From Dechloromonas sp. (GTDB lineage: Bacteria; Pseudomonadota; Gammaproteobacteria; Burkholderiales; Rhodocyclaceae), in NCBI GenBank assembly GCA_016790815.1, contig JAEUOG010000032.1, forward strand, positions 26,756-90,755: a stretch of 64,000 nucleotides of DNA. The letters are read 5' to 3'. Positions 1 to 59,920 of the stretch are shown piece after piece. The position numbers were made by a program, and so were the translations under genes. The notes under the pieces were generated by a model, which worked only from the letters and a program-made list of their open reading frames with translations, did no database searches and was not told where the DNA came from. Position 1 is the first letter of the stretch; the number at the start of each line of letters is the position of its first letter.

Positions 1-324
1 CTGGCGGTCGTCGGTGGCCAGTTGCTCGCAAAGGGCGTGGCAGTTGTGGCCGTCGGCGCCCGAGGCGGAGAAGACGGTGGCCAGCGTTGCGACATCCGTG
101 CCGGCATGGGCGGCGCCTTCGAGGCCGATGGCCAGCGTCAGCTTGACGACGCGGCTGGCCCGGCGCCGCTCGGCCGGGGGCAGGATGCTCGGTGCTGGCA
201 AAACGGAGGCTGCTGCGGTCAACGGCGTTTCACCACGCAAAACGGCGCGGGCGGTCGGCCAGTCCGGCATGCCGGGGGCCAGGAAACCGATGCCTTCGAT
301 CCAGGCGGTCAGCGGGCGGCTCAT
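1..324 (-). CDS. Beta-ketoacyl synthase-like chain length factor (partial)
   Basis: The first 108 codons of a gene that runs off the left edge of the window. The N-terminus (MSRPLTAWIEGIGFLAPGMP) and the segment VFSASGADGHNCHALCE resemble the ketosynthase-like partner subunit (ApeC/chain-length-factor type) of aryl polyene clusters, which pairs with an active ketosynthase to set polyene length. Its ATG (322-324) overlaps the TGA of the upstream ketosynthase gene as ATGA, so the two are translationally coupled and probably form a heterodimer. The active-site region is not in the window, so lack of a catalytic cysteine cannot be shown. One copy of the dispersed repeat (208-244) lies inside it. 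Confidence 0.75.
   Translation of the reverse strand, partial: MSRPLTAWIEGIGFLAPGMPDWPTARAVLRGETPLTAAASVLPAPSILPPAERRRASRVVKLTLAIGLEGAAHAGTDVATLATVFSASGADGHNCHALCEQLATDDRQ
208..244 (-). repeat. Dispersed 36-bp element, copy 1
   Basis: Minus-strand copy, core GTTGACCGCAGCAG, inside the chain-length-factor-like gene. The 5' T-rich arm is weaker than in other copies. Confidence 0.6.
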
Positions 325-1511
325 TTGGCTACCCCGAGAATCAGGCTGCAATTGCTGCCACCAAAACCAAAGGAGTTGGTCAGGGCGTGCCTGACTTTGC
401 CGTCGCGGGTTTTCAGCAGGTAATCAACAGGAATGGCAGGATCGACGTTTTCGGTGCCTGGGCTGCCGGGCAGGAAACCGTCGGTCAGCGTCAGCGCGCA
501 GATGATCGCTTCAACGGCCCCGGCGGCACCCAGCGTGTGGCCAGTGGCGCCCTTGGTTGAGCTGCAGGGAACGGTGTTTCCGAAAAGGGCAACAACGGCC
601 TTGCCCTCGGCTGCATCGTTGGCGGGTGTCGAGGTGCCGTGCAGGTTGATGTAGTCGATGTTGCCGGCGGTCAGCCCGGCGGAGCGCAGCGCGGCTTCCA
701 TGGCCATTCTGGCGCCGAGGCCTTCCGGGTGTGGCGAGGACATGTGGTACGCGTCGCTCGATTCGCCGGTGCCGAGCAGCAGCACCGAGCCCGGCGCCGG
801 TTGCTCGCAGCGTTCGAGCAGCGCGAATGCTGCGCCTTCGCCAATCGAAATGCCGTTGCGCGCCGCATGGTAGGGGCGGCAAGGCTGGCTGGAGGTCAGT
901 TGCAGCGAGGCGAAGCCGTACAGCGTAGTCAGGCACAGCGTATCGACGCCGCCGACAATGGCCGCGTCGATGGTGCCAAGTTCGAGCTGGCGGGCGGCCG
1001 CGGCGAAAACCTTGGCGCTCGACGAACAGGCCGTCGAAATGGCCATGGCCATGCCTTCCAGCCCGAAATAATCGCGCGTGAATTCGGCCAGCGAGAAGGA
1101 ATTGTGCGTCGTGCGGTAATGGAATTCGTTCGGCAAGGCGCCGGTTTCCGGGGCGCGCCGGCGATAGGCCAGTTCGGTCTGCAAAATGCCGGCCGTGCTG
1201 GTGCCGAGGAAAACGCCGACCCGCGTTTTGCCGTAACGGGCGATAGCCTCACGGACGCGGTCGGCAAACCCGTCCGTTTCGAGGCCCATCTGGGTCAGGC
1301 GGTTGTTGCGACAATCATATTCGGCCAGCGATTCCGGCAGTTTTTCGGCGTCGACCGCAGCAACCTCGCCCATCCAGGTATCCAGCCGTACCGTCTCGAA
1401 CGCGCACGGCACCAGCCCGCTCCGCCCGCTGCGCATCGCATCGCGCGTGGCATCAAGCCCGCGGCCGAGGCAGGTAGTGGCGGTGTAGGCGGAAAGCAGC
1501 AGCGGGGTCAC
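321..1511 (-). CDS. Beta-ketoacyl-ACP synthase (APE-type ketosynthase)
   Basis: A 396-residue thiolase-fold condensing enzyme that would extend an acyl-ACP chain with malonyl-ACP. The complete Cys-His-His triad is visible: Cys162 in STACSSSAK, His291 in NLHGTSTPAND and His325 in KGATGHTLGAAG. The C-terminal glycine-rich NSFGFGGSN is also present. Length is normal for the FabB/FabF family. It is coupled by ATGA to the chain-length-factor-like gene, the arrangement known for the ApeO/ApeC heterodimer of aryl polyene biosynthesis. Assignment to the APE pathway rests on the neighbouring ACPs, ligase, dehydratase and MMPL exporter. A dispersed-repeat copy encodes AAVDAEKLPES near residues 51-61. 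Confidence 0.88.
   Translation of the reverse strand: MTPLLLSAYTATTCLGRGLDATRDAMRSGRSGLVPCAFETVRLDTWMGEVAAVDAEKLPESLAEYDCRNNRLTQMGLETDGFADRVREAIARYGKTRVGVFLGTSTAGILQTELAYRRRAPETGALPNEFHYRTTHNSFSLAEFTRDYFGLEGMAMAISTACSSSAKVFAAAARQLELGTIDAAIVGGVDTLCLTTLYGFASLQLTSSQPCRPYHAARNGISIGEGAAFALLERCEQPAPGSVLLLGTGESSDAYHMSSPHPEGLGARMAMEAALRSAGLTAGNIDYINLHGTSTPANDAAEGKAVVALFGNTVPCSSTKGATGHTLGAAGAVEAIICALTLTDGFLPGSPGTENVDPAIPVDYLLKTRDGKVRHALTNSFGFGGSNCSLILGVAK
1330..1365 (+). repeat. Dispersed 36-bp element, copy 2
   Basis: Plus-strand copy, GATTCCGG then TTTTT then GTCGACCGCAGCAA, inside the ketosynthase gene and in open frame. Confidence 0.75.
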
Positions 1512-1659
1512 GGTGGCGCTCGATATGGGGTACGCTGATTTTAGCAGAGGGGGCGGTGGAGAAAGGGGCCGAATCGTTCTCGGCAGCTAAGCCGGCCATC
1601 GTCTAAACTGCTCTGGTACCGGTATTCAAAATCGAAATCGCTTTCCGGATTGGGGGGAA

Positions 1660-2451: not shown

Positions 2452-2462
2452 TCCGGGATTTC

Positions 2463-2498
2463 ATTTTTGGCCGGAATTTCCGGTTGACCGTGGCAGTT
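2463..2498 (+). repeat. Dispersed 36-bp element, copy 3
   Basis: Plus-strand copy, ATTTTTGG then GGTTGACCGTGGCAG, in the 49-base gap between the convergent hydrolase and DUF1615 genes. It contains an additional small palindrome, CCGGAATTTCCGG. Confidence 0.8.
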
Positions 2499-5852: not shown

Positions 5853-5881
5853 GCGACGGTTCCACGTGAAACGCGAAGTTT

Positions 5882-5918
5882 CATTTTTTGCTGTTTTTCC
5901 CGGTCGACCGCAGAAGCC
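5882..5918 (+). repeat. Dispersed 36-bp element, copy 4
   Basis: Plus-strand copy, TTTTTT, TTTTT then GGTCGACCGCAGAAG, intergenic between the MMPL gene and the hydrolase gene. Confidence 0.85.
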
Positions 5919-5921
5919 ACG

Positions 5922-8255
5922 CTATTCATGGCTACGTCCCGAAAAACAGGCCGCCAGCATCAGCGCCAGCACTGCGCCCGGGCCTACGGTGACACCGATG
6001 GCGTGCAGGACCGGCACACTGGACAGGGCGAGTGTGCCGAAGCCGATGGCCGTGGTCAGGTTGGCGACGGCCATTGAGGCCAGCGTCGGCGGATCGAGCC
6101 GCCCATCGTTGCCGGCGCTGTCGAAAAACAGGGCGTAATTGGAGCCGACGGCGACGATCAGGAGCATGCCGATCAGGTGCATGAGATGTAGCTGTTCGCC
6201 GGACAGGTGAACGCCGGTAATGACGAGGATGACGGCAAGCAGCAGCGGCAGCAACACGGCGCCGAGCCGGCGGGCGGAGCGCAAGGTGACGGCGAGCAGG
6301 CCGACGATCGCGACGAAACCGGCCAGCGAGAGCAGCGTCGCTTCGTCGAGATAATCGTTGTAAAGCCGGTCGAATTCCGACTTCATGTCGATGAACAGCG
6401 CACCACTGCCGGCCAGCGCGGTGCGTACCGGTGCGATGTCGATGTCCACGCCCTTGTCACCGGCGGGCGGGCGCAGCGGCAACAGCACACTCCAGCTATC
6501 CGGCCGTTGCATGAGCAGCGAATCGACAGCCAGCGCCAGGCTGGTGCCGTTGAGCGATTGGCGGGTGATGCCGGCCTGCTCTTTCGCTTTGTCCACTTCG
6601 TCGAGGAAGGGGCCAAGTTTGCTGGCCGCGAGCGGCGAATCGACTTGTGCCATTTGCAGGCGAGCAACCAGTTCATGGCTGGCCGGCAGGCTCGCCCGGC
6701 GTGCTGCCTGCATGGCCTGGCTGGGGAGGAAACGGGCTGGGCTGTCGTAACCGCCCAGAACGCCGCGGGCGACCAGTTCGTCGAGCTGCTGCCCTGCCCG
6801 CTCGGCGGCCTGCAGCGCGGCTTCGCGGTCCGGGGCGGTGATGACGACCATGTAGCGCGAGTCCGGGGCGCCAATGTCAGCCCGCAGATCCATGTCGGTT
6901 GCCGCGTCGGCTGCACTGACCGTACTCAGGGCCGACAGGTTCGGGTGCCAGAGCTGATCCCGGTTGATGACGAGCACGGCGGTCGCGGCGAGAGTGAGCA
7001 GGATGACCGGCCAGCGCAGTTTCTGCATGGTCCGGATGCCCTGTCTGATGGGCGGCGTGAGGTGGCTCAGGTCGCGGACCGGATGATCGTTGCTGGCCAG
7101 TGCCGGCAGGATGAAGCGGGTGACGAGCGCGGCGACCAGTACGCCGCTCAGCGAATAGAGGCCTAGTTGCGCGAGACCCGGGAAGCCGGAAAAAAGCAGT
7201 GCCGCGAAGCCGCAAACGGAAGTGAGCACGCCGAGCCTGATGGTCGGCCAGAAGCGTACCCGCCATTCCGCCGCGCCCATCCGGCCGGACTGGACGAAAT
7301 AATAGATCGAGTAGTCGACCGCCTCGCCGATCAGTGCCGCGCCGAAGCCGACGGTGATGCCGAAGACCGTGCCGTAGATGAGGCTGACGGCGACGATGCC
7401 GGCCAGCGCGCCGCTGACCACGGGCAGCAGGCCGAGTGTGAGGAGCCGGCCCGAGCGATAGACGAAAAACAGCACGGCGATGATGGCCAGCGTGCTGATC
7501 GCCGATAGCTTGCTGACTTCGCTCTTGATTGTTTCCCGCGATTTGACGGCGAAGACGCCGGGACCGGAAATCACGATCCGCGCGTCGCTGAAGCCAGCCT
7601 CGCGCGCGCTGTCGGCAAACTGGCCGCGGATGGTGGCGATGGTATTTTCCTGCGCGTCAGTGTCCGAACCGAGGGCGGCGCTCTGAATGAGCAGCATCGC
7701 CCGCGCGCCGTCGCGCGAAGCCCAGACGCCCTCGCGGATATTGGGCTGGGCGCCGGCGTTGAGCGCGGTGAGAAGTTCCATCATTTCGCCGGTCGGGTCG
7801 CGCGGCAACAGGGGTTTGATCACCATGCCCGCCGGCGAGGCGAGCAGGTCGACGCTGTTGGCGATGCTCTCGCGCAGGCCTTCGACGGTGAAACGTTCGG
7901 GCTTGACGGCTGGGCTGAGCAGGTAGCGGTGGCGGAACAGGAAATCACGGTCGGCATCGAGGCTGCCGGCCTGGCCGTTCTGCACGCTGACGAATTCGGG
8001 CATTTTTTCCAGTCGACCGTGCAACTGGCGTGAAGCAGCCGCTCGCTGCGTCGCGTTGCCGCCTTCGATGGCGACCATGAGCAACCGGGTGACGGCCCCC
8101 TCCTTCAACTGATCAACCAGCACCTGCTGCGTGGCGCTCGGCCGGCCAGGCAGGAAAAACGACATATCGGCCGAAAAATGGCTGTTCCAGACCACGGCTG
8201 CCCCGGCCAGCATGGCCAGCAGCCAGATCAGGAAGGCACGGGCAGCCGCGCTCAT
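5922..8255 (-). CDS. MMPL/RND-family exporter
   Basis: A 777-residue inner-membrane transporter with the duplicated RND layout. One helix sits at residues 7-24, then a large periplasmic loop, a block of five to six helices (about 235-390), a second isolated helix (about 412-430), a second loop, and a last helix block (about 630-775). Family members move lipids or lipid-like polyketides from the inner membrane. In aryl polyene clusters the equivalent protein (ApeM) is taken to export the pigment. Its start overlaps the LolA-like gene by 4 bases. A repeat copy lies in the first periplasmic loop, encoding GRLEKMPEF. Confidence 0.87.
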   Translation of the reverse strand: MSAAARAFLIWLLAMLAGAAVVWNSHFSADMSFFLPGRPSATQQVLVDQLKEGAVTRLLMVAIEGGNATQRAAASRQLHGRLEKMPEFVSVQNGQAGSLDADRDFLFRHRYLLSPAVKPERFTVEGLRESIANSVDLLASPAGMVIKPLLPRDPTGEMMELLTALNAGAQPNIREGVWASRDGARAMLLIQSAALGSDTDAQENTIATIRGQFADSAREAGFSDARIVISGPGVFAVKSRETIKSEVSKLSAISTLAIIAVLFFVYRSGRLLTLGLLPVVSGALAGIVAVSLIYGTVFGITVGFGAALIGEAVDYSIYYFVQSGRMGAAEWRVRFWPTIRLGVLTSVCGFAALLFSGFPGLAQLGLYSLSGVLVAALVTRFILPALASNDHPVRDLSHLTPPIRQGIRTMQKLRWPVILLTLAATAVLVINRDQLWHPNLSALSTVSAADAATDMDLRADIGAPDSRYMVVITAPDREAALQAAERAGQQLDELVARGVLGGYDSPARFLPSQAMQAARRASLPASHELVARLQMAQVDSPLAASKLGPFLDEVDKAKEQAGITRQSLNGTSLALAVDSLLMQRPDSWSVLLPLRPPAGDKGVDIDIAPVRTALAGSGALFIDMKSEFDRLYNDYLDEATLLSLAGFVAIVGLLAVTLRSARRLGAVLLPLLLAVILVITGVHLSGEQLHLMHLIGMLLIVAVGSNYALFFDSAGNDGRLDPPTLASMAVANLTTAIGFGTLALSSVPVLHAIGVTVGPGAVLALMLAACFSGRSHE
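7992..8027 (+). repeat. Dispersed 36-bp element, copy 5
   Basis: Plus-strand copy, GAATTCGGGC then TTTTTT then AGTCGACCGTGCA, inside the MMPL gene. Confidence 0.8.
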
Positions 8256-8821: not shown

Positions 8822-9729
8822 TTTTTCTGCCAGAAATCGAAGAAATTGAACCAGTTATACGGCGCTAGATGGCAATAGTGGGTCAGACGGTCGGCGTAGT
8901 GTTGCATGGCGGCATGGATCGCGGCATCGCGTTCTTCGCGTGTCGTCCGCGAAAAATCGGCCAGCGGCTCGAAGTGCAGCTGGTAGCGGTTGCCGCCGAG
9001 ATAGAGGCCGGTCATGAAGAAAACCGGGCGGCGCAGCATGGCGGCCATGCGGAAGGGCCCGAGCGGGAACGGCGCCGGTTTGCCGAGGAAATCGCAGTCG
9101 ACCGTGGCATCGTCGCCCAGCCCACGGTCGGCCAGCATGCCGACAAGATACCCTTCGTCGAGCCGGTCGCGGGCCTGCAGCATCGAATCCATGCGGCCGA
9201 GCGGGATGATGTCCTGGCTGGCGGCCGGGTTGATCGCTTCAAGCGTCGCGTTGATTTTGCGAGCGTTTTCCTCGTACATCATCATCGCGACCTTGAGGCC
9301 CTGCTGCCCTCGCCCCACGGCGCGAAGGACTTCGAAGCTGCCTAGGTGGGCACCGATGAGCAAGGCCCCGGGGTGCTCGACAGCGACTTTCTGGACGGCT
9401 TCGTTGCCGATGATCTCGATGTCGAAGAGGTCGAAACGGTCGTTAAGCAGGTAGATGCGGTCATGGATGGTGCTCGCGAAGCTGAAAACATGGCGAAAAC
9501 CGTCCGACCACTCGGCCCAGCGGTTAAGCGCCAGATGCAGGTAGTCGCGACTGGAGCGGCGTGCACGTGGCGAGAAGAGAACGAAATAGGCGGCAATGCC
9601 ATAGAGGACGATCCGGCCAACCCGGCGCCCGAAGGTCAGCGAAATCCAGACCATGAGTTTCAGGATAGCCAGATTGCTGCGTTCCTGCTGACGCATCCAG
9701 TCGGCGTCGGTCGGATCTTTCTGGCTCAT
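8818..9729 (-). CDS. LpxL/HtrB-like lysophospholipid acyltransferase
   Basis: A 303-residue membrane-bound acyltransferase of the lipid A acyltransferase (LpxL-like) family. A hydrophobic N-terminal segment (about residues 22-52) anchors it. The HX4E catalytic motif is seen in GAHLGSFE (His128, Glu133). In APE-type clusters such an enzyme is thought to attach the polyene to a lipid or lipid-linked sugar at the inner membrane. Coupled by 4-base overlaps to the LolA-like gene and the dehydratase gene. A weak relative of the dispersed repeat lies at about 9085-9110 but was not counted. Confidence 0.85.
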   Translation of the reverse strand: MSQKDPTDADWMRQQERSNLAILKLMVWISLTFGRRVGRIVLYGIAAYFVLFSPRARRSSRDYLHLALNRWAEWSDGFRHVFSFASTIHDRIYLLNDRFDLFDIEIIGNEAVQKVAVEHPGALLIGAHLGSFEVLRAVGRGQQGLKVAMMMYEENARKINATLEAINPAASQDIIPLGRMDSMLQARDRLDEGYLVGMLADRGLGDDATVDCDFLGKPAPFPLGPFRMAAMLRRPVFFMTGLYLGGNRYQLHFEPLADFSRTTREERDAAIHAAMQHYADRLTHYCHLAPYNWFNFFDFWQKK

Positions 9730-10031: not shown

Positions 10032-11373
10032 GGCTGACTTTCTCGGCATATAGCGCTAGCAGATCACCGCGTGGAAGCTTGCCGGTACTGTTGCGCGGCA
10101 AGCGGTCGACGAGAATGAGCGGCCGGGGCAGGAAAATGGCGTCGATGCGCTGGCGCAATTCGACGGTGAGCTGTCGGGCACTCAGTCCGGGCGCGACGAC
10201 AAAGGCGGTCAGGCGCGTGATGCCGTCCGGGCCTTCCTCGTCGGGCAGGAAAAAGGCGCCATCGACGACACCGGGTAGCGCGCAAAGCTGATGGTTCAGG
10301 TAGGCCAGCGACGTGCGCTTCCCGGCGAGGTTGATGAGGTCGGCGTGGCGGCCGTGGAGCAGGAAGCGCTGGTCAGGCAGTAGCTCGATGAGGTCTGACA
10401 GCGCGACCCGGCCTTCGACGTGGCCGGCGCTGGCGACAGTGTCGTCGCCCTCCTGTTCGAGCTGGACGCCGGGCAGCTGGGTCCACGCGGCGCCGTCGGT
10501 GGTGCGCCGGGTTGCCAGTTGGCCGGACTCGGTCGAGCCGTAGATTTCCAGCATCGGGGCGCCGGTGCGCGCTTCGGCTTCGGTGGCCAGCGTCATCGAC
10601 AGCGGCGCGGTGGCCGAGAGCAGCATATCGACGGGCGGCAGCTCAATTTCGGCGGCGAGCAGCGACGAGAGGTGGAAAGGCGTGGTGACGAGCAGGCGCG
10701 GTTGCGGCACGGCGGCCAGTGCGCCGGCGATGTCCTGTGGATAGAACGGCTTGCCGGCCCAGAAGGCGCAGCCGCCGTGCAGGGCGAGCAGAAAGGTCGA
10801 TTCAAAACCGTAGCTATGCTGGACCGGGACGGTACCGACGATGGCGTGCGGCTGTCGGTCGAGACCGAGTGCGGTCGCTTCGGCCTGGCCGTTGGCGACG
10901 AGTTTGCCCCAGGTTTTGGGCTGCGCCTGAGGAAGGCCAGTCGACCCCGAAGTGAACAGGATGGCTGCCAGACGCTCGGCCGGAAACTCGGGAATGTTCG
11001 ATGCCGTTTTGGGCTTTTTTTTGCGGTCGACCGCAGAAATGGCTGGAAAGTCGAAGCGCGGCAAGTCGAGCGTATCGGCGGGGCCGTCGCACAGGCAAAT
11101 CAGGCCGGTGTACTCAATTTGCAGCCGGCGTAAGGTTTCCGGAGCTTGCGACGAGGGTTGCAGGCTGGTCATGCCGCGCAGCAGGCCGGCCGCGAAGCCT
11201 ACGGCAAAGCGGTAGCGGTCGTTGCAGAGATTGAGCAGGAAGCCGGCAGGCGGCAACTGATCGGCCAGGCAGACGGCGTCGGCGAGGTAGTCACCAACGC
11301 TGATGGGCCCTTCGGTTGTCCAGGCAAGTACGGCGTCAGGATCGGTGTGGGCCAGCAGCGGAAGGGAAGTCAT
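10018..11373 (-). CDS. AMP-dependent acyl-ACP/CoA ligase
   Basis: A 451-residue adenylate-forming enzyme. The ATP-binding loop TSGSTGLPQ is at about residues 141-149, EIYGSTESGQ follows, then the hinge LLHGRHADLINLAGKR, and the C-terminal catalytic lysine region PRNSTGKLPRGD. It is shorter than typical acyl-CoA ligases, as are the aryl-ACP ligases (ApeH type) that load 4-hydroxycinnamoyl-like starters onto the ACP. The start at 11373 overlaps the upstream TGA as ATGA. A repeat copy encodes AISAVDRKKKPK (111-122), a basic stretch in a surface loop before the P-loop. Confidence 0.87.
   Translation of the reverse strand: MTSLPLLAHTDPDAVLAWTTEGPISVGDYLADAVCLADQLPPAGFLLNLCNDRYRFAVGFAAGLLRGMTSLQPSSQAPETLRRLQIEYTGLICLCDGPADTLDLPRFDFPAISAVDRKKKPKTASNIPEFPAERLAAILFTSGSTGLPQAQPKTWGKLVANGQAEATALGLDRQPHAIVGTVPVQHSYGFESTFLLALHGGCAFWAGKPFYPQDIAGALAAVPQPRLLVTTPFHLSSLLAAEIELPPVDMLLSATAPLSMTLATEAEARTGAPMLEIYGSTESGQLATRRTTDGAAWTQLPGVQLEQEGDDTVASAGHVEGRVALSDLIELLPDQRFLLHGRHADLINLAGKRTSLAYLNHQLCALPGVVDGAFFLPDEEGPDGITRLTAFVVAPGLSARQLTVELRQRIDAIFLPRPLILVDRLPRNSTGKLPRGDLLALYAEKVSHGGR
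11006..11041 (+). repeat. Dispersed 36-bp element, copy 6
   Basis: Plus-strand copy, GTTTTGGGC, TTTTTTTT then the perfect palindrome GCGGTCGACCGC followed by AGAAA, inside the ligase gene. Confidence 0.85.
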
Positions 11374-16821: not shown

Positions 16822-17225
16822 GAGGCCGGACGAACGAAGCGAAGATAGTCAGGGAGGGAACATTCTAGCGTCTGGCCGTGAAGGCGGTGTTTTTGTTCGC
16901 CCCGCATCTGCCAATTGAATTTTGGCCAATTTCTTCGGTTGACCCCAGCAATGGCGCCCTGAGCGGCCTGGCTTGCCGCCGCGTTGTCGTACTTGGCGCG
17001 GATTTCGTCGCTTTCGACGATGCGCTCGTCCTTGAATTTGTCCAGCGTCAGGTCGTCGGTGATGTTGATGGTGACCGCTTCGTCGCTCTTGCCGTCACTG
17101 GCCCACTTGATTTTGGTGATGACACCGGCCATCTTGACGTCGTCTGCCGAGGCAATCGGGGAAACGGTCAGCGGGGCAGCCGCAAGTGCGATGGAAACTA
17201 ACCTCCGGTGGTTTGTCCCAGCCAA
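16822..17225 (-). pseudogene. Decayed small periplasmic-protein gene
   Basis: An open frame encodes a signal-peptide-like stretch (VSIALAAAPLTVSPIASA) and a short domain (MAGVITKIKW, VTINITDDLTLDKF, VESDEIRAKYDN), then an alanine-rich piece and unrelated-looking sequence. That tail starts where a repeat copy (16917-16955) occurs and runs without a stop into the NodJ-like gene. A good ribosome-binding site (GGAGG near 17208) is followed by ATC rather than ATG at the expected spacing; the ATG at 17225 lies upstream of it. Lost start, missing 3' end and overlap suggest a remnant. It could instead be a real gene with an unusual tail. The rest of the 16822-17349 stretch holds two repeat copies and nothing else I can name. 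Confidence 0.5.
16917..16955 (+). repeat. Dispersed 36-bp element, copy 8
   Basis: Plus-strand copy, GAATTTTGGCC then GGTTGACCCCAGCA (one base off the usual core), at the 3' part of the decayed ORF. Confidence 0.75.
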
Positions 17226-17256
17226 CTTGCGGAGGTTGGCCCAGGGGCCACACTCT

Positions 17257-17292
17257 AAATTCGGGCTTTTTTTCCCGTTGACCGCAGAAGTT
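17257..17292 (+). repeat. Dispersed 36-bp element, copy 9
   Basis: Plus-strand copy, AAATTCGGGC, TTTTTTT then GTTGACCGCAGAAG, in the divergent gap before the radical SAM gene. Confidence 0.85.
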
Positions 17293-19724: not shown

Positions 19725-20642
19725 TCAGTCGCGCAGTTCGCGACCGGTCAGTTTGATAAAAACGTCTTCGAGATTGGAGGCGCGATGGACGTAGCGCAGG
19801 CCGTCGACCTCGGCCAGCCGGGCCAGCAGTTGGCGCGGGTCGCGACAGTAGAAAAAGGCAGTTTCGCCGCTGGTTTCGACGCGCTCGGCCAGATGCTTTT
19901 CATTTTTGACGAAATTGTCCAGTTGACCGTGGTATTCGTCGTAAACCTCGATCACCTGCGGCTCGATCTGCTCGGCGATCAGCTGGCGCGGGCTGCCTTC
20001 GGCGATCTTCCGGCCATGGTCGATGACGATAAGCGTGTCGCACAGGCGTTCAGCTTCGTCCATGAAATGCGTTGTCAGAATCAGTGTCTTGCCCGCCGAT
20101 TTGAGCTGTTTGAGGCGATCCCAGATCAGGTGGCGTGCCTGCGGGTCGAGGCCGGTGGTTGGCTCGTCGAGGAAAATGATGTCGGGGTCGTTGACCATCG
20201 CCCGGGCCAGCGTCAGCCGACGCTTCATGCCGCCGGAAAGTGTCGACAAGCGGGCGCCGGCCTTGCTCGACAGGCCGGCAAAGTCGAGCAGTTGTGGGAT
20301 CTTGGCACGGATCTCGGCGTCCTTGAGCCCGAAGTAGCGGCCGAAGACGAGCAGGTTTTCGGCGCAGGTGAAATCGGGGTCGAGATTGTCGAATTGGGGT
20401 ACGACGCCAATGCGTGCCCGCGCCGCCTGAGCGTCGTCGGGAATGGCGTGGCCGTTGAGCACGATTTCGCCGCTGTCCGGCCCGGTCAGGCCAAGGCAGA
20501 GGCGCAGCGTTGTCGTCTTGCCGGCGCCGTTCGGGCCGAGCAGGCCGAAACAGGTGCCGGCTTCGACAGCGAACGACAGGCCGGCAACGACTTCGTTGCC
20601 GGCGTAGGTCTTGCGCAGTTCGCTTGCGGTCAGTGCCGCCAT
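19725..20642 (-). CDS. ABC transporter ATP-binding protein, NodI-like
   Basis: A 305-residue ATPase. Walker [10 protein letters not shown] is at about residues 34-42, the Q-loop in [10 protein letters not shown], the signature LSGGMKRR and Walker [14 protein letters not shown]. It should energise the NodJ-like permease at 16051-16821. Its start overlaps the upstream hydrolase gene by 13 bases. A repeat copy near the 3' end encodes [15 protein letters not shown], in the C-terminal regulatory region outside the nucleotide-binding core. Confidence 0.92.
19901..19936 (+). repeat. Dispersed 36-bp element, copy 11
   Basis: Plus-strand copy, CATTTTTGACG, AAATT then AGTTGACCGTGG, inside the NodI-like ATPase gene. 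Confidence 0.65.
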
Positions 20643-27520: not shown

Positions 27521-28174
27521 TCAAAAAGGGGCGTCGGAATGAAATTGGATGGCTGCTGCGGTCAGCGGGTGAAAAAGGCCCAAATCCATGGCGTGCAGGA
27601 GCAGTCGATCGGCCAGCCCAGTCGCCTCGCCGCCATAAAGGTCGTCACCGAGAATCGGGTGGCCGAGCGAGGCCATATGGACGCGGAGCTGGTGTGAGCG
27701 ACCAGTGACCGGCTCGAGTTCGACGCGCGTCGTGTTGGCGGCCGGGTCGCGGCTGACGACGCGAAACCGGGTCAACGACGGCTTGCCAATCTCGAAATCG
27801 ACCTTCTGTCGCGGACGGTTCGGCCAGTCGCAGATCAACGGTAGCTCAACCTCGCCGCTCTCCTCCGCCATTTGCCCGTAAACGACGGCGACGTAACGCT
27901 TTTCGATCTGGCGTTCGCGGAAAAATCGCGAAAGCTGCCGGTGCATTTCCGCTCCTCGCGCCAGAACGAGCAGGCCGGAAGTCGACATGTCTAGGCGATG
28001 GGCGATCAGCGCATCGGGGAAGCGGGCCTGAACGCGCGACGCCAGGCAGTCGTCCATGCCCTCCCCGCGTCCCGGCACGGAGAGTAGCCCGGCTGGTTTA
28101 TCGACGACGATGATTTCGTTATCGACGTGGATGACGGTCAGGCCGTTGTCGGGTGGTGGCAGATAGGCAGTCAA
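27521..28174 (-). CDS. rluA: Pseudouridine synthase RluA
   Basis: A 217-residue RluA-family enzyme that isomerises uridine in 23S rRNA and tRNA. The catalytic aspartate lies in HRLDMSTSG, and family blocks GLLSVPGRGE, ICDWPNRPRQKV and GRSHQLRVHM are present. Length agrees with E. coli RluA. I chose a TTG start at 28174, preceded by AGGGTGAAAG; it overlaps the TGA of the small upstream ORF as TTGA. The frame is open further upstream to 28399, but that part is a frame shadow of the small ORF. The coupling suggests SOS-linked expression of rluA. Confidence 0.9.
   Translation of the reverse strand: MTAYLPPPDNGLTVIHVDNEIIVVDKPAGLLSVPGRGEGMDDCLASRVQARFPDALIAHRLDMSTSGLLVLARGAEMHRQLSRFFRERQIEKRYVAVVYGQMAEESGEVELPLICDWPNRPRQKVDFEIGKPSLTRFRVVSRDPAANTTRVELEPVTGRSHQLRVHMASLGHPILGDDLYGGEATGLADRLLLHAMDLGLFHPLTAAAIQFHSDAPF
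27551..27586 (-). repeat. Dispersed 36-bp element, copy 13
   Basis: Minus-strand copy, GATTTGGGCC, TTTTT then GCTGACCGCAGCAGCC, inside the last 12 codons of rluA. Confidence 0.75.
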
Positions 28175-34083: not shown

Positions 34084-34131
34084 ATGGCCGATAGTACGTT
34101 CGCTTTTCAAACCATATTGAGGGGACACCCA

Positions 34132-36299: not shown

Positions 36300-36335
36300 G
36301 TTCGCTGCGGTCAACAGGATAAACAGCGCGAAATC
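36300..36335 (-). repeat. Dispersed 36-bp element, copy 15
   Basis: Minus-strand copy, GATTTCGCGC, TGTTTAT then GTTGACCGCAGCGAA, intergenic between the hybrid kinase gene and ttcA. Confidence 0.8.
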
Positions 36336-36391
36336 CAAAATCAGGCAGTTTACCTCGAGTCACCGGTCGGGCGAAACAAATCTTTGTTGAA

Positions 36392-39148
<2,757 letters not shown>

Positions 39149-40396: not shown

Positions 40397-41557
40397 ATGA
40401 ACAACCTGCCGATCCCCGCCCCAGAAGCCCTTTCTCACAGCGCGCGCTTGCACCAAAGTCTCGCTGACGAGATTTCAGCCGCTGGAGGCTGGCTTTCCTT
40501 TTCGCGGTTCATGGAGCAGGTTCTCTATGCCCCGGGCCTTGGCTATTACACGGCCGGGGCGCGCAAGTTCGGCGCGGCGGGCGACTTCATCACGGCGCCT
40601 GAAATGACCCCTTTGTTCGGCCAGGCGCTGGCACGCCAGGTTGCTCAGATCATGGCGGCATCGGCGGCGATGGTGCTTGAAGTGGGGGCTGGGTCGGGGC
40701 GCCTGGCTGCCGACTTGCTGCTGACGCTGGAGAAATCAGAGGCATTGCCGGAGCGCTATTTTATTCTGGACTTGTCAGCAGACCTGCGTCAGCGCCAGCA
40801 GGAAACGATAGCGGCAGCTGTGCCGCATCTGCTGTCGCGGGTGACCTGGCTGGACCGGCTGCCGCAGGAATTCTCCGGTGTTGTCGTCGCCAACGAGTTG
40901 CTGGATGCCATGCCGGCCCACATTGTTGCCTGGCGGGAAGAAGGGATTTTCGAGCGCGGCGTTGCTGTCGACGCGTCCGGTAACTTCATGTGGAAGGAGT
41001 GCCCGGCGAGTGGGGCCCTGCTGGCCGCCGCTGTCGAAATTGGCGAGCAATGCAGCCTGCCGCCGGGTTTTGAGAGCGAAATCAGCCTTGCGGCGCGGGC
41101 TTGGGCCACAGAATGGGGACATCGCCTGAAAAAAGGTGCTCTGGTCTTGCTCGACTATGGCTTTCCTCGCCGTGAGTTCTACCATCAGCAGCGGGGGCGC
41201 GGCACCCTGATGTGCCATTACCGCCACCATGCACACCCTGATCCGTTTTACTTGCCTGGTCTGCAGGATGTTACGGTCCACGTCGATTTCACGTCGATTA
41301 TTGCAGCTGCTCACGCCAGCGGCCTGTCGTTGCTCGGCTACGCCAGCCAGGGCCAGTTTTTGCTCAATTGCGGGATTTTGGATTGCCTGGCGAAGATACC
41401 TGACGCAACGCCAGATTACATCCGCGCCGCGGGAGCGGTCGGCAAGTTGCTGATGCCACACGAAATGGGCGAGTTGTTCAAGGTGATCGCCATTGGCCGT
41501 GGCATCGATGAGGAACTGGTCGGTTTTGCCAACGGAGACCAGAGCCGGCGTCTGTGA
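40397..41557 (+). CDS. MidA/NDUFAF7-like protein methyltransferase
   Basis: A 386-residue SAM-dependent methyltransferase of the COG1565 family. Family blocks: FSRFMEQVLYAPGLGYY, GDFITAPEMTPLFGQALA, the SAM loop LEVGAGSGRLAADLL, ANELLDAMP, and LLDYGFPRREFYH. The eukaryotic member NDUFAF7 dimethylates an arginine of a complex I subunit; the bacterial substrate is unknown. Start ATG 40397; divergent from the FIST gene. Confidence 0.88.
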   Translation: MNNLPIPAPEALSHSARLHQSLADEISAAGGWLSFSRFMEQVLYAPGLGYYTAGARKFGAAGDFITAPEMTPLFGQALARQVAQIMAASAAMVLEVGAGSGRLAADLLLTLEKSEALPERYFILDLSADLRQRQQETIAAAVPHLLSRVTWLDRLPQEFSGVVVANELLDAMPAHIVAWREEGIFERGVAVDASGNFMWKECPASGALLAAAVEIGEQCSLPPGFESEISLAARAWATEWGHRLKKGALVLLDYGFPRREFYHQQRGRGTLMCHYRHHAHPDPFYLPGLQDVTVHVDFTSIIAAAHASGLSLLGYASQGQFLLNCGILDCLAKIPDATPDYIRAAGAVGKLLMPHEMGELFKVIAIGRGIDEELVGFANGDQSRRL

Positions 41558-49056: not shown

Positions 49057-50183
49057 GCGGCGCGGCAGGCGGTACTGAAACGCTTGAGCGCTTCTTCAAG
49101 CGTGCTGCGCGGACAGCCGAAATTGAGCCGCAGCCAGCCTGGTGCGCCGAAGTCGGCACCGTCGGAGAGGCCCAGGCCGTGTGCCTCGAAATGGGTGGCC
49201 GGCTTGGCCAGGCCGAGCTCGCGGACGTCGATCCAGGCCAGATAGGTGGCTTCGACCGATTTCATTTTTACCCCTTTTTCACCGTTGACCGTGGCAGTCA
49301 CCAGATCGCGGTTAGCGCGCAGGTAGCCGATCAATTCGCGATGCCAGTCGCCGCTATCGCGGTAGGCCGCTTCGCAGGCGGCCAGCCCGAGGACATTCAC
49401 GTGGGGGACGATGCCGCGCATGGCGTGCGCGAAGCGGTGGCGCAACTGGGTATCGGGAATGACTGCAAAAGCGCAGCCGAGGCCAGGGATGTTGAAGGTT
49501 TTCGACGGCGCCATGAGCGTGATGCTGCGCCTGGCCGCCTCCGGCGAGAGGCTGGCGAACGGGATGTGGCGCTTGTCGGCGTCGAGGATCAGTCCACAGT
49601 GGATTTCGTCGGAGCAGACGATCAGGTCATTGGCTTCGGCGAGGGCGGCGATTTCCAACAGTTCGTCGCGGCTCCAGCAGCGCCCGACCGGGTTGTGCGG
49701 GTGGCAGAGCAGGAAGAGTTCGGTTTCAGCGTTTATCGCAGCCTTTAGTGCGCTGTGATCGAATTGCCAACCATCCTCGGTGCACGCCAGTTCGGCGCGG
49801 CTCAGCTTGCGGCCGGAAAAGTGCGGCGCAGACAGAAACGGCGGGTAAATCGGCGTGGCCGTCAAAACGGCGCCATCGACTGCCCGGCAGGCGACGTTGA
49901 GCCCGGTGACCAGACCCGGCAGCCACACGATCCAGTCTGCCTCGATGCGCCAGTCGTATTCGCTTTCAAGGTGAGCGAGTACTGACTCCGTGAGCGACGG
50001 CCACGGCCCGCCATAGCCGAAGACGCGGTGCTCGATGCGCCGGTGCAGGGCTGCCATGACGGCCGGCGGCGCAGCAAAATCCATGTCCGCCACCCAGAGT
50101 GGCAGCACATCACGTCCGGCGTAACGACGCCACTTCTCGGAGTCCGAGCCGCGGCGGTCGATGGGCTGGTCGAAGGCGCTCAC
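49053..50183 (-). CDS. PatB/MalY-type C-S beta-lyase
   Basis: A 376-residue fold-type I PLP enzyme. PLP lysine in [12 protein letters not shown], phosphate-binding and Asp/Asn residues in HNPVGRCW and CSDEIHCGL. Homologues cleave the C-S bond of cystathionine and cysteine conjugates, giving homocysteine or a thiol, pyruvate and ammonia. It is coupled by 4-base overlap to cysK. A repeat copy at 49264-49299 encodes [12 protein letters not shown] in the C-terminal domain. Confidence 0.9.
49264..49299 (+). repeat. Dispersed 36-bp element, copy 19
   Basis: Plus-strand copy, ATTTTTACCC, TTTTT then CGTTGACCGTGGCAGTC, inside the patB-like gene. Confidence 0.8.
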
Positions 50184-51112
50184 ACGTCGAGATGCTGATA
50201 AAGCACGGTGGACAGGTAACGCTCGCCGCAGGACGGGATGATGACGACGATGTTCTTGCCGGCGTTCTCCGGGCGTTTGGCGACTTCCAACGCGGCCCAG
50301 CTGGCAGCGCCGGACGAAATGCCGACGAGCAGCCCTTCTTCGGTCGCCATGCGGCGGGCCATGGTCAGCGCATCGTCGTTCATGACGCGGATCACCTCGT
50401 CGTAAATGGCGGTATTGAGCACGGCCGGGACGAAGCCGGCGCCGATGCCCTGGATCGGATGCGGGCCTTTGGCGCCGCCGGACAGCACTGGTGAGGCGTC
50501 GGGTTCGATGGCGATGACCTGGATTTTCGGATTTTTGGCTTTCAGTGCCTCGCCCACCCCGGTCACCGTGCCGCCGGTGCCGACGCCGGCGATGAAGATA
50601 TCGACCTGGCCATCGGTATCGCGCCAGATTTCCTCGGCCGTCGTGCTGCGGTGGACGGCCGGATTGGCCGGATTTTCAAATTGCTGCGGGATGAAATAGC
50701 GGCTGTCGCTGGCGGCCAGTTCCATTGCCCTGTTGATCGCGCCGCCCATGCCGTCCGGGCCCGGGGTCAGGATCAGTTCGGCGCCATAGGCCTTGAGCAG
50801 CAGCTTGCGTTCGCGGCTCATCGTCTCCGGCATCGTGAAAGCGCACTTCACGCCGCGCGCCGCGCAGACCATGGCCAGGCCGATGCCGGTGTTGCCCGAA
50901 GTGGGTTCGAGCACAACGGTGTCCGGCCCGATCTTGCCCGCAGCGATGGCTGAATCGAGCATGGCGACGGCGATGCGATCCTTGACGCTGCTGCCCGGAT
51001 TGAAGAACTCCAGCTTGGCGAGAACGGTGGCGCCGCTGCCGGCGACAACGCGGTTGAGGCGAACCAGCGGCGTGTTGCCGACCAGTTCGGTGATGTCTTT
51101 GGCGATTCTCAT
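50180..51112 (-). CDS. cysK: Cysteine synthase CysK
   Basis: A 310-residue O-acetylserine sulfhydrylase. The PLP lysine lies in [11 protein letters not shown], the substrate loop is PTSGNTGIG, the phosphate loop [10 protein letters not shown]. The start was set at ATG 51112; a longer frame to 52123 is antisense to the carbonic-anhydrase-like gene. With the coupled C-S lyase it makes an operon that both makes cysteine and can break C-S bonds. Confidence 0.95.
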
Positions 51113-51290
51113 GATGCGCTTCCAAAAAGTGATGCGTGATTGTAGGCGACTCTGCGCCCGTCGTGGCGGGCAGCTTGGCCGTTCGGAAGAGTGCACGGCT
51201 TGTTCAGGCAGCCTTTCACGCGACAACGGATCACCAAGTTCCGTGCGGCCGGCCCTTCCCGCGAAACACGGTTGACGGTACAAAGACGAA

Positions 51291-51325
51291 TAAATCCAGT
51301 GCGGCGCCATTGACCGCAAAAAAGA
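51291..51325 (+). repeat. Possible weak copy of the dispersed element
   Basis: AAATCCAGTG then GGCGCCATTGACCGCA, between cysK and the divergent carbonic-anhydrase-like gene. It lacks the T-rich arm and GG-TY core; counted only as doubtful. Confidence 0.3.
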
Positions 51326-51361
51326 ACAGCGAGACCGCATTGCCAACACGCCGGAGGGGAC

Positions 51362-54561: not shown

Positions 54562-55910
54562 TGGATCAATCTACCCCGCCCGCCCCTGTCACTTTCTGGG
54601 AAGCTTTCCGCTTCTGGCTCAAGCTCGGTTTCATCAGCTTCGGCGGCCCGGCCGGGCAGATTTCGATGATGCATCAGGAACTGGTCGACAAGCGCCGCTG
54701 GCTGTCGGAAGGCCGTTTCCTGCATGCGCTCAATTACTGCATGGTGCTGCCCGGACCCGAGGCGCAACAACTGGCGACCTACATCGGCTGGCTAATGCAC
54801 CGAACCTGGGGTGGTATCGTCGCCGGCGTGCTGTTCGTGCTGCCTTCCTTGTTCATCCTGATCGCGCTGTCGTGGATCTACATTGCCTACGGCAACACGA
54901 CGCTGGTTGCCGGGCTTTTCTTCGGCATCAAGCCGGCAGTGACGGCCATCGTTTTGCAGGCGGCCTGGCGGATTGGCTCGCGGGCGTTGAAGAACAAGCT
55001 GCTGTGGGCGATTGCAGCGGCAGCCTTCGTTGCGATTTTCGTTTTTGCCACGCCATTTCCGGCGATTGTCGCGGTTGCCGCCCTGATTGGTTACCTTGGC
55101 GGGCGCCTGTGGCCGGATTTCTTCAAATCCCACGGTCAACACGGAAAAAGCGCCAAATCCGCAGGGCCGGCGCTGATCGACGATGGCACCCCAACGCCGG
55201 AGCACGCCTTGTTCCGCTGGTCACGTCCGCTCACGGTGGCTGTTATCGGCGCCCTGCTCTGGGCGCTGCCGATGGGCCTACTCACCGCCACACTCGGCTG
55301 GAATCACACGCTGACCCAGATGGGCTGGTTCTTCACCAAGGCTGCGCTGCTTACCTTCGGCGGCGCCTATGCCGTGTTGCCATACGTCTATCAGGGCGCG
55401 GTGACGCATTTCGGCTGGCTGACACCGACCCAGATGATCGATGGGCTGGCGCTGGGCGAAACGACGCCGGGGCCGCTGATCATGGTCGTTGCTTTCGTCG
55501 GCTTCGTTGGTGGCATCCAGGCGCCGCAAATGCAGGCCATGTTCGGACCGGATGGTCTGTTCCTGGCGGGGGCAATTGCGGCCAGCGTCGTGACGTGGTT
55601 TACGTTCCTGCCCTCATTCATCTTCATCCTGCTCGGCGGGCCGGTGGTTGAAACGACGCACGGCAATCTCAATTTCACCGCGCCGCTGACGGCGATTACG
55701 GCGGCCGTGGTGGGCGTAATCCTCAATCTGGCCTTGTTTTTCGCTTATCACGTGTTCTGGCCGCAGGGCTTTGCCGGCAAATTTGACCTTGTTTCGGGCC
55801 TGATTACGCTGACTGCCGCGCTGGCGCTCTTCCGTTTCAAGCAAAGCGTCATTCGGGTAATTGTCGCTAGCGCTCTGCTCGGGTTGGTGCTCAAGCTGCT
55901 GGGTGCCTAA
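54561..55910 (+). CDS. chrA: Chromate transporter ChrA
   Basis: A 449-residue long-chain ChrA with two homologous halves: FGGPAGQISMMHQELVDKRRW in the first (two parts) and FGGAYAVLPYVYQGAV with ALGETTPGPLIMVVAFVGF in the second. Long-chain ChrA proteins export chromate. Start ATG 54561; the longer open frame (54450) overlaps the YqaA-like gene. A minus-strand repeat copy encodes FFKSHGQHGKSAKSAG in the hydrophilic linker between the halves. Confidence 0.93.
   Translation: MDQSTPPAPVTFWEAFRFWLKLGFISFGGPAGQISMMHQELVDKRRWLSEGRFLHALNYCMVLPGPEAQQLATYIGWLMHRTWGGIVAGVLFVLPSLFILIALSWIYIAYGNTTLVAGLFFGIKPAVTAIVLQAAWRIGSRALKNKLLWAIAAAAFVAIFVFATPFPAIVAVAALIGYLGGRLWPDFFKSHGQHGKSAKSAGPALIDDGTPTPEHALFRWSRPLTVAVIGALLWALPMGLLTATLGWNHTLTQMGWFFTKAALLTFGGAYAVLPYVYQGAVTHFGWLTPTQMIDGLALGETTPGPLIMVVAFVGFVGGIQAPQMQAMFGPDGLFLAGAIAASVVTWFTFLPSFIFILLGGPVVETTHGNLNFTAPLTAITAAVVGVILNLALFFAYHVFWPQGFAGKFDLVSGLITLTAALALFRFKQSVIRVIVASALLGLVLKLLGA
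55124..55159 (-). repeat. Dispersed 36-bp element, copy 21
   Basis: Minus-strand copy, GATTTGGCGC, TTTTT then GTGTTGACCGTGGGATT, inside chrA at the linker between the two halves. Confidence 0.75.
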
Positions 55911-59000: not shown

Positions 59001-59885
59001 GGCAACCTGCCCAAACGCACCTCGCGCGCCCTGCTCGACATCGAGGACGACAAGGTCATTCCGGTCATACGCAACCCGCAGAAGACAACCGAGGATTCAG
59101 ATGCCGTCTTCTACTTCCCCGGTTGCGGTTCCGAGCGCCTGTTCTCGCAGGTCGGTCTGGCCACGCAGGCGATGCTCTACGAAACCGGCGCCACCACCGT
59201 GCTGCCGCCGGGCTACCTGTGCTGTGGTTATCCGCAGACCGCTTCGGGCGACGAAGACAAGGGCCAGAAGATCACGACGGATAACCGCGTGCTGTTCCAC
59301 CGTGTTGCCAATACGCTGAACTATCTCGACATCAAGACGGTGATCGTTTCCTGCGGTACTTGCATGGATCAGCTGCAGAAATACCAGTTCGAGAAGATCT
59401 TCCCCGGCTGCCGCCTGCTCGACATCCACGAATACCTCATGGAAAAAGGCGTCAAGCTGGAGGGTGTCAGCGGTACGCGCTACATGTATCACGACCCCTG
59501 CCACACGCCGATGAAGGCCTATGCCCCGCTCGCCGTCACCAAGTCGCTGATGGGCCAGGAGGTTCCGCTGACCGACCGTTGCTGCGGCGACTCTGGCTCC
59601 TTCGCGTACTCACGGCCGGACGTCGCGACGCAGGTCAAGTTCCGCAAGCAGCAGGAAATCGAAAGCGGCACCGCCAAATTGCGCGCCGATGGGTTCAAGG
59701 GCGATGTCAAGATACTGACCTCATGCCCGGCCTGTTTGCAGGGGTTGTCCCGCTATGACGATGACGCTGGCACCAAGGCTGATTACATCGTCGTCGAACT
59801 GGCCAAGCATCTGCTCGGCGAAAACTGGATGGCGGACTACGTCGGCAAGGCCAATACGGGTGGGATAGAACGGGTGCTGCTCTGA
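56010..59885 (+). CDS. DUF3683/FAD-oxidase/Fe-S/CCG-domain oxidoreductase
   Basis: A 1291-residue giant oxidoreductase. DUF3683 (about 1-175) precedes a PCMH-type FAD-binding domain (about 175-350, [14 protein letters not shown]), an FAD-oxidase C-terminal domain (about 380-800, ending [11 protein letters not shown] and GEHGIGITK), two 4Fe-4S motifs ([22 protein letters not shown]) and two CCG domains with CCGYPQ and CCGDSGSF. This order is that of D-2-hydroxyacid/glycolate-type dehydrogenases fused to their GlpC/LutA-like electron-transfer part. Probably oxidises a 2-hydroxyacid into the quinone pool. Monocistronic; a repeat copy follows immediately. Confidence 0.92.
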
Positions 59886-59920
59886 TTTTCGCCTGTTTTT
59901 TCGGGTCGACCGTGAAATAG
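59884..59920 (+). repeat. Dispersed 36-bp element, copy 22
   Basis: Plus-strand copy, GATTTTCGCC, TTTTTT then GGGTCGACCGTGAAA, overlapping the last two bases of the oxidoreductase gene. Confidence 0.8.

What the first reader, a model, noticed from the sequence alone, without database searches (positions are those of the whole stretch)
208..59920. A dispersed asymmetric 36-bp element with about 22 copies in 60 kb
Seen directly: 22 segments on both strands share the same architecture. GATTT(T/C)GG(C/G)C is followed by a T-rich stretch of 6-9 bases and then GGTYGACCGYRGCAG. The distance between the GATTT and the GTYGACC is nearly constant at about 17 bases. Two subtypes alternate: GTCGACCGCAGCAG and GTTGACCGTGGCAG. 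About 8 copies are intergenic and 14 lie in genes. Copies are absent from 30.0-36.2, 37.9-43.9 and 44.8-49.2 kb. The pattern is too long for a plain restriction site and too conserved at two separate blocks for chance. Possible roles: DNA uptake signal, nucleoid or partition factor binding site, or a non-autonomous REP/MITE-like element. I know of no named family with this sequence.
Basis: seen in the sequence. Interest (0 to 1): 0.82.

Follow-up and report, generated by a model that had tools for sequence, protein, structure and literature searches.

The report
Self-recognition tag for DNA uptake
A 36-base DNA tag repeated hundreds of times in the genomes of one group of environmental bacteria looks like the 'own DNA' label that some bacteria use when they take up free DNA, a trick reported so far from only two other bacterial families.

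Summary
The element is real and genome-wide. A 13-base core occurs 557 times in the held genome, against 2 for the reversed control. Copies lie in both orientations, evenly spaced, without replication bias. Its reverse complement is a core, YRCGGTCRAC, followed by two A/T tracts about one helical turn apart: the plan of the Pasteurellaceae uptake signal sequence (USS).

I found it in one betaproteobacterial genus only (Azonexus/Dechloromonas type). There, 43 of 76 genomes carry it, 6 are intermediate and 27 lack it, in at least four dialects. None of 247 genomes from elsewhere in the order shows the dialect-1 core above 21 copies. At gap-free orthologous sites five dialect-1 carriers share it in 116 of 134 comparisons; three non-carriers have it in 0 of 62. 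No coding site shows a clean insertion. Three inserts in carriers (125.6 kb) hold none; about 44 were expected.

Best reading: a DNA uptake signal sequence, a third independent case after Neisseriaceae DUS and Pasteurellaceae USS. Uptake is untested, the receptor unidentified, and the link to competence-gene integrity not significant.

The parts
208..247 (-). element copy, 27.0 bits, intergenic
1326..1365 (+). element copy, 31.2 bits, in gene 321-1511
2459..2498 (+). element copy, 43.3 bits, between convergent genes
5879..5918 (+). element copy, 43.6 bits, intergenic; the matching gap in G026 is about 70 bases shorter
7988..8027 (+). element copy, 29.5 bits, in gene 5922-8255
9073..9112 (+). 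weaker element copy, 22.4 bits, in gene 8818-9729
11002..11041 (+). element copy, 41.0 bits, in gene 10018-11373
11016..11055 (-). overlapping opposite match on the self-complementary core, 23.1 bits
15841..15880 (-). element copy, 33.5 bits, in gene 15715-16032; kept in place in G002, G066, G075, G033
16914..16953 (+). element copy, 34.6 bits, intergenic
17253..17292 (+). element copy, 39.5 bits, intergenic
19898..19937 (+). element copy, 37.2 bits, in gene 19725-20642; absent, without gap, in G034 and G026
23168..23207 (-). element copy, 33.2 bits, in gene 22049-24763
27551..27590 (-). element copy, 27.5 bits, in gene 27521-28300
29929..29968 (+). element copy, 23.9 bits, in the gene after recA
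31972..32011 (+). marginal match, 14.5 bits, in rpoN
36300..36339 (-). element copy, 34.9 bits, intergenic; the same gap carries a differently spelt copy in G002, G075 and G079
37829..37868 (-). element copy, 24.5 bits, in sensor kinase gene
41266..41305 (-). weak match, 20.9 bits
43910..43949 (+). weak match, 18.9 bits
44677..44716 (+). element copy, 33.6 bits, in gene 43802-45040; kept in G002, G066, G075, G033, absent without gap in G034 and G026
49260..49299 (+). element copy, 42.5 bits, in gene 49053-50183
50641..50680 (-). weak match, 19.9 bits
52509..52548 (+). element copy, 42.7 bits, intergenic
55125..55164 (-). element copy, 30.9 bits, in gene 54561-55910
59881..59920 (+). element copy, 36.4 bits, just past gene 56010-59885

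Best explanation
The element is a DNA uptake signal sequence: a tag that marks a cell's own kind of DNA for natural transformation. Inferred mechanism: a surface receptor, most likely a minor type IV pilin (not identified), binds the core YRCGGTCRAC of free double-stranded DNA. The two A/T tracts about one and two helical turns away help the helix bend or melt so that the DNA can be pulled through the outer membrane; ComEC then passes one strand inward and RecA recombines it. Because tagged fragments are imported more often, tagged alleles spread by recombination. The tag thus builds up by point mutation, evenly over the genome and in either orientation, in genes and gaps, and is missing from newly arrived DNA. 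When the receptor's taste shifts a new dialect grows; when uptake is lost the tags decay. Shown here: distribution, architecture, in-place origin in coding sequence, co-retention among carriers, dialects, patchy presence in the genus, absence from three foreign inserts. Inferred: binding, uptake, the receptor, the direction of each change, and the role of each tract.
For: Copy number: 557 exact 13-mers against 2 for the reversed control in the own genome; about 0.34 per kb in 397 kb, hence roughly 860 in the 2.54 Mb held (extrapolated). Orientation: 273 to 284; on the complete chromosome G066, 82 leading to 70 lagging copies in a 400-kb sample. Even spacing: CV of gaps 0.59 against 0.95 at random, reached in 0 of 1000 simulations. 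Intergenic about two-fold enriched, yet 94 of 133 lie in genes. Both A/T tracts are seen in five carriers and G062 and in none of four non-carriers. In-place origin: kept at 116 of 134 gap-free orthologous sites among five dialect-1 carriers, at 0 of 62 in three non-carriers with similar flank identity, 0.84 and 0.81; no deletion of 25 bases or more among 91 spanned sites. Dialects: GTYGACCGYRGCA; YGACCGTAGCATT (310, 451 and 372 copies of its 12-mer in G028, G093, G097); GTCGACCGCAACAG (G019); GTCGACCG with tracts but no fixed right part (G062, G086). In G028 18 perfect 12-mers against 6 one-off, the strong-consensus hallmark that PMC1626085 names. Foreign inserts: 0 copies in 125.6 kb, about 44 expected, with 10 in 34 kb of their flanks. 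No match in IMG/VR for one 21-base form (records near this genome may be left out). comEC: a match in 75 of 76 genomes, above the curated cut-off in 68.
Against: No uptake or transformation experiment. No receptor found: ComP_DUS-family pilins occur in 70 of 76 genomes, carriers and non-carriers alike. Broken comEC is not significantly rarer in carriers: 6 of 41 against 9 of 30, p = 0.15. The ComEA model TIGR00426 is above its cut-off in 67 of 76 genomes but not in the complete carrier genome G066 or in G014. Retention is lower in other carriers: G029 20 of 24, G079 9 of 14, and G028, of another dialect, 12 of 35. Close inverted pairs acting as terminators, common in USS/DUS, are rare: 1 pair within 120 bases among 133 copies of G000, 3 pairs (1 of them opposite) among 152 of G066. 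Density is about a third of the roughly 1 per kb of USS/DUS. In dialect 1 one-off words outnumber perfect ones for all seven words tested. Most of the evolutionary evidence would also fit any slowly evolving chromosome-wide binding site.
Confidence: 0.8

Rival explanations
1. Binding site of a nucleoid-associated or chromosome-organising protein, read inside the cell.
For: Even spacing, both strands, in genes and gaps, A/T tracts that bend DNA; absence from recent inserts would follow too.
Against: No replichore bias in the G066 sample. Carried by 43 of 76 congeners and absent from 27, with 10 changes on an rpoN tree and several core dialects, which is unusual for a housekeeping site (inference). 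The closest architecture that I found described is the USS.
Confidence: 0.13
2. Recombination or segregation signal of the Chi or KOPS kind.
For: Abundant, genome-wide, asymmetric.
Against: Such signals are short and skewed to the leading strand (recalled); here 82 to 70 in the G066 sample and 273 to 284 in the own genome. The dialect-1 core is not enriched elsewhere in the order.
Confidence: 0.02
3. Methylation-linked iterated word, like cyanobacterial HIP1.
For: The inner GTCGAC is self-complementary and over-represented.
Against: The conserved unit is about 36 bases with two distant tracts and its non-palindromic half defines dialects. Methyltransferases were not searched for.
Confidence: 0.03
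4. Dispersed mobile repeat (REP, MITE, insertion remnant).
For: Many similar copies. One intergenic site (5879) aligns to G026 in two pieces with about 70 bases missing there.
Against: Among 91 spanned orthologous sites in three non-carriers 62 are gap-free without the element, 29 have gaps of at most 19 bases and none of 25 or more; no conserved flanks beyond 36-40 bases; rare close pairs; copies sit in conserved genes.
Confidence: 0.01
5. By-product of codon use or base composition.
For: In-gene copies prefer one reading frame in each direction.
Against: G034, with a 95% identical RpoN and syntenic genes around rpoN, has 14 exact 13-mers where carriers have hundreds; reversed control 2; 39 of 133 sampled copies are intergenic.
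Confidence: 0.01

Closest known systems
Uptake signal sequence (USS) of Pasteurellaceae (PMC1626085 passages; PMC12616744 abstract and Introduction)
   Same: Core plus two A/T-rich segments on one side; many copies, both orientations, coding and non-coding; origin by point mutation; dialects. 81 of 133 sampled copies have C at the Y position and so read GCGGTC where GACCG is intact, which contains the USS inner core GCGG.
   Different: Core YRCGGTCRAC, not AAGTGCGGT or ACAAGCGGT; tracts begin about 9 and 20 bases past the CGGT, against about 2 and 14 in USS (my reading of the PMC1626085 numbering), and are about 10.5 apart, against 12; about a third of the density; a betaproteobacterial genus; few inverted pairs.
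DNA uptake sequence (DUS) of Neisseriaceae (PMC3630211 abstract; PMC12616744 Introduction)
   Same: Dialects within a betaproteobacterial lineage; large copy number (thousands in DUS genomes); mobile elements with atypical DUS content (PMC7371117 abstract).
   Different: DUS is a contiguous word of up to about 13 bases with a CTG core and no A/T tracts; no similarity to this core.
HIP1 and Chi words (PMC4390886 passages)
   Same: Over-represented dispersed word.
   Different: Short; HIP1 is palindromic, Chi strand-skewed (recalled); no distant tracts.

Membership tests
DNA uptake signal sequences (general class) | Hundreds to thousands of copies genome-wide, far above chance | tested here: met
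   557 against 2; 135 above 12 bits in 397 kb, 3.0 expected
DNA uptake signal sequences (general class) | No orientation or replichore bias | tested here: met
   273/284; 82/70 on the G066 sample, sides set by local GC skew
DNA uptake signal sequences (general class) | In genes and, preferentially, between genes | tested here: met
   94 in genes, 39 between, about 2-fold enrichment (crude gene caller)
DNA uptake signal sequences (general class) | More even than random spacing | tested here: met
   CV 0.59 (G000) and 0.70 (G066) against about 0.95, 0 of 1000 each
DNA uptake signal sequences (general class) | Arises by point mutation, not insertion | tested here: met
   62 gap-free orthologous sites in three non-carriers all lack it; no deletion of 25 or more in 91 spanned sites, one intergenic two-piece exception
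DNA uptake signal sequences (general class) | Dialects that differ between relatives | tested here: met
DNA uptake signal sequences (general class) | More perfect than one-off core words | tested here: inconclusive
   met in G028 (18 to 6); not met for the seven dialect-1 words tested, nearest 52 to 56 for an 11-mer in G066
DNA uptake signal sequences (general class) | Frequent inverted pairs used as terminators | tested here: not met
   1 pair within 120 bases among 133 copies (G000); 3, one opposite, among 152 (G066). A common companion, not a defining requirement
DNA uptake signal sequences (general class) | Raises DNA uptake by competent cells | not testable with these tools
   needs an assay
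DNA uptake signal sequences (general class) | Competence machinery present | tested here: inconclusive
   comEC match in 75 of 76, above cut-off in 68; ComEA above cut-off in 67; ComP_DUS pilins in 70, GspH pilins in 71; presence does not separate carriers from non-carriers
Pasteurellaceae USS proper | Core AAGTGCGGT or ACAAGCGGT | tested here: not met
   core is YRCGGTCRAC
Pasteurellaceae USS proper | Two A/T segments on one side of the core, about one turn apart | tested here: met
   spacing differs in detail
Neisseriaceae DUS proper | Contiguous word with CTG core, no A/T tracts | tested here: not met
REP/MITE | Present as an insertion relative to orthologous sites | tested here: not met
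   (coding sites)

The most novel reading that the evidence does not exclude
A third, independently evolved uptake-signal system outside Neisseriaceae and Pasteurellaceae. It sits in an environmental betaproteobacterial genus, converges on the core-plus-two-A/T-tracts plan and even on a GCGGTC-like core, has at least four dialects, and has been lost or gained about ten times among 52 genomes on a single-gene tree. Mobile elements that repeatedly insert into comEC may be one way in which uptake, and with it the tag, is lost.
Probability: 0.72. Interest if true: 0.88.

Novelty: new variant of a known kind. Interest (0 to 1): 0.82.

Why it matters
[quoted passage not shown] A third case in environmental bacteria would show that the solution evolved repeatedly and that the A/T-tract plan may be a physical requirement rather than a family quirk. 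It would also give one genus with carriers, non-carriers, intermediates and dialects in which the origin, switch and decay of uptake specificity, a long-standing question, can be followed genome by genome. The tag is also a practical handle: transforming fragments for these bacteria should carry it.

Tried and rejected
Mobile repeat: rejected for coding copies by the gap test. Composition or codon artefact: rejected by reversed controls and by close non-carrier congeners. Replication-oriented signal: no bias. A clean competence-gene correlate: looked for with comEC, ComEA, GspH and ComP_DUS models; none separates carriers from non-carriers by presence, and broken comEC gives p = 0.15. A first classification by one 13-mer (38 of 76) was replaced after it missed dialects 2 and 4. 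The first tree (13 changes with that labelling and two outgroups) was replaced (10 changes, 9-10 over bootstrap trees, at least 3 forced by well-supported branches). k-mer lists for G034, G067, G084 and G026 showed no replacement word that I could recognise among the 22 printed per genome (40-140 kb each). cmsearch on 41 of the 80 rpoN loci of named relatives gave no match. The genome-wide R1 search scores at most 150 candidates and is not a count.

Weak points of my counts: the matrix was seeded from the window and trained on the own sample, so its counts are partly circular; the exact-word censuses are not. Only the dialect-1 word was searched over the order, so other dialects outside the genus are untested. 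Pairs share sites between references and are not independent. Of 213 comparisons with non-carriers, 122 were not spanned; 95 of these had no hit at all, mostly because the other locus does not reach there (my reading), 12 aligned in two pieces and 15 otherwise. Five genomes (G078, G061, G092, G032, G020) were left out of the comEC comparison because their comEC is fragmentary or missing. 'Broken' was judged by hand from the listing, which is cut short; in G005, G007, G018 and G008 the pieces lie on different contigs or only one is listed, so assembly breaks may count as breaks. In one search several stretches were cut short by contig ends.
Full report
What is there. The window lies in a 2.54-Mb, 81-contig genome (76% complete) of a betaproteobacterium. 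The closest named rpoN relatives are an Azonexus sp. MAG and MAGs named only Betaproteobacteria. That the genus is GTDB Azonexus, which takes in Dechloromonas, is my recall.

The element. Twenty window copies align without gaps over 40 bases. A matrix refined on 397 kb of the same genome outside the window gives TTTC(A/G)ATTTTGGCC-NN-TTTTTCCG-GTYGACCGYRGCA, with no conservation beyond it. Its information lies in three blocks: an A/T tract, a second A/T tract about 10.5 bases on, and the core. Read in reverse it is TGCYRCGGTCRAC-CGG-AAAAA-NN-GGCC-AAAATYGAAA. The sample holds 135 copies above 12 bits where a Markov-4 null gives 3.0. The exact word GTYGACCGYRGNA occurs 557 times, and its reversed control 2 times.

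With GTYGACCG fixed, the two tracts are 0.76 and 0.65 A+T in this genome and 0.81 and 0.74 in G066. The spacer is 0.32-0.35 and distant flank 0.38-0.40. In G034, G067, G084 and G026, which lack the element, the same 8-mer has flat flanks (9 to 23 sites each). The right half (YRG) and the tracts go together: 66 of 95 sites with it have both tracts, 20 of 96 without (G000).

Distribution. In the own sample 94 copies lie in genes and 39 between genes, about two-fold above the intergenic share (crude gene caller). In-gene copies use mostly one frame in each direction, as constraint by codons predicts. Orientation is neutral: 273 and 284. On the complete chromosome G066, sampled as 20 stretches of 20 kb, 82 copies point with and 70 against the leading strand as judged by local GC skew. 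Spacing is much more even than random: CV 0.59, none of 1000 simulations as low. Close pairs are rare.

Relatives. Of 60 genomes searched with the model, 34 of 36 of the genus (own included) and 0 of 24 others in the order matched at E 0.01; in many congeners only a few copies did. Of 250 genomes of the order, the 247 from outside the genus have at most 21 copies of the 13-mer, including five genomes of other genera in the family. Only dialect 1 was tested there. In the genus I classed 76 genomes by three words: the 13-mer, the dialect-2 word and a dialect-free word of two A/T tracts plus GACCG. With 100 copies of any word as the line, 43 are carriers; 6 are intermediate (G069, G071, G094, G004, G006, G099) and 27 lack it; the largest control count of the tract word is 16. 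On an rpoN tree of 52 of these genomes the carrier label needs 10 changes (9-10 over bootstrap trees), at least 3 of them forced by well-supported branches. The intermediates may be genomes in which the tags are decaying (inference).

Dialects. Dialect 1 is GTYGACCGYRGCA (G000, G002, G066, G075, G088, G033). Dialect 2 is YGACCGTAGCATT (G028 310, G093 451, G097 372 exact copies of the 12-mer GACCGTAGCATT). Dialect 3 is GTCGACCGCAACAG (G019). A fourth has the tracts and GTCGACCG but no fixed right part (G062 237 and G086 255 tract-word copies). The word CGGTC, that is GACCG, is common to these. In G028 perfect 12-mers outnumber one-off words 18 to 6; in dialect 1 the seven words tested do not show this.

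How it arises. I took orthologous sites around rpoN from 11 other genomes. With five dialect-1 carriers as reference, 116 of 134 gap-free comparisons among them keep the element (284 tried, 175 spanned). With the non-carriers G034, G026 and G024, 0 of 62 do (213 tried, 91 spanned). Flank identity is 0.84 and 0.81; identity in the informative columns is 0.89 and 0.65. Other carriers: G029 20 of 24, G079 9 of 14, G028 (dialect 2) 12 of 35; the intermediate G004 1 of 12. Pairs share sites and are not independent. Of the 29 spanned but gapped sites in non-carriers the largest deletion is 19 bases. Of 12 sites that align in two pieces one, intergenic (5879 against G026), fits the loss or gain of about 70 bases. 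In coding sequence the element therefore appears and disappears in place, by substitutions, and a mobile repeat is excluded there. This is the same argument that PMC1626085 (passages read) used to show that USS are not insertions.

Foreign DNA. In three carriers, out of six with broken comEC, I fetched the DNA that splits comEC: 33.7, 43.3 and 48.5 kb. These 125.6 kb hold no copy by matrix or by tract word; about 44 are expected at 0.35 per kb, and 34 kb of flanks hold 10. The G002 insert begins with a large serine recombinase and carries a type ISP restriction enzyme and a DNA polymerase B. One exact 21-base form of the element is absent from IMG/VR (it occurs 5 times in 461 kb of G000 and 19 times in 400 kb of G066; near records may be left out of that scan). 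Atypical DUS content of integrated elements is an established marker in Neisseriaceae (PMC7371117, abstract read).

Mechanism. The pattern is that of a DNA uptake signal: abundant, orientation-free, evenly spread, tolerated in genes, born by point mutation, kept among carriers, patchy in the genus, in dialects, missing from foreign DNA, and built as a core with two A/T segments like the USS (PMC12616744 Introduction; PMC1626085 passages). I infer that a surface receptor binds the core and that the tracts ease bending during passage. A minor type IV pilin is the likely receptor by analogy with ComP. The genome has a pilin cluster with a ComP_DUS-family member; by sequence its nearest solved structures are pilins in general. 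Such pilins occur in 70 of 76 genomes regardless of the element, so presence alone does not point to the receptor.

Against. No experiment; no receptor; competence genes do not separate the groups; few inverted pairs; lower density than USS or DUS; weaker core consensus in dialect 1. An intracellular chromosome-wide binding site would explain much of the distribution, though not easily the patchiness and the dialects.

Known or new. PMC12616744 (Introduction read, 2025) says that only Neisseriaceae and Pasteurellaceae are known to do this. TerminatorNet (PMC13020248, passages read, 2026), run on thousands of genomes, reports such motifs in those two families. My searches for a report in this group listed none that I recognised from titles and abstracts in the open library; most subscription papers and all preprints are outside it. 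The core differs from the USS and DUS consensus words given in the passages that I saw. I file it as a new variant of a known kind: it works like a USS, but is not a member of the Pasteurellaceae USS or Neisseriaceae DUS families.

Noticed in passing
G002:C33:109264-144789 (L221, L222); G095:C1:2720194-2765330; G087:C22:222682-273036; G067:C1:2218349-2252635; G084:C1:3064248-3130284; also G004, G017, G080, G035: comEC in this genus is often split by about 5-64 kb of other DNA, at different points of the gene; the G002 insert starts with a large serine recombinase. comEC looks like a recurrent insertion target of mobile elements, in carriers and non-carriers alike.
   Followed up: partly
G034:C1:1958422-1959913: In this complete, element-free genome the comEC match is in two abutting pieces in different frames, and no piece in the shortened listing covers the profile before position 157.
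   Followed up: no
G071, G004, G099, G069, G094, G006: Six genomes with intermediate counts of the tract word (22-93, controls 3-12), possibly decaying tag sets after loss of uptake.
   Followed up: partly
L237:7435-8531 and other genomes: A ComP_DUS-family pilin gene lies within 1.5 kb of a GspH-family pilin gene in 32 of 76 genomes (my hand count of listed coordinates), an arrangement other than the pilY1-cluster end seen in G000.
   Followed up: partly
window 50180-52123 (-): Open frame of 647 aa in which the cysteine synthase domain fills residues 344-642; none of the 25 families shown (of 37) covers the long N-terminal part, which may be a fusion or a wrong start.
   Followed up: no
window 34191-34365: Two 73-base direct repeats, starts 102 bases apart, 75% identical, at an open frame 34084-34389.
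   Followed up: no
G017:C10:153969-155348: A second, 48% identical rpoN copy in one congener.
   Followed up: no
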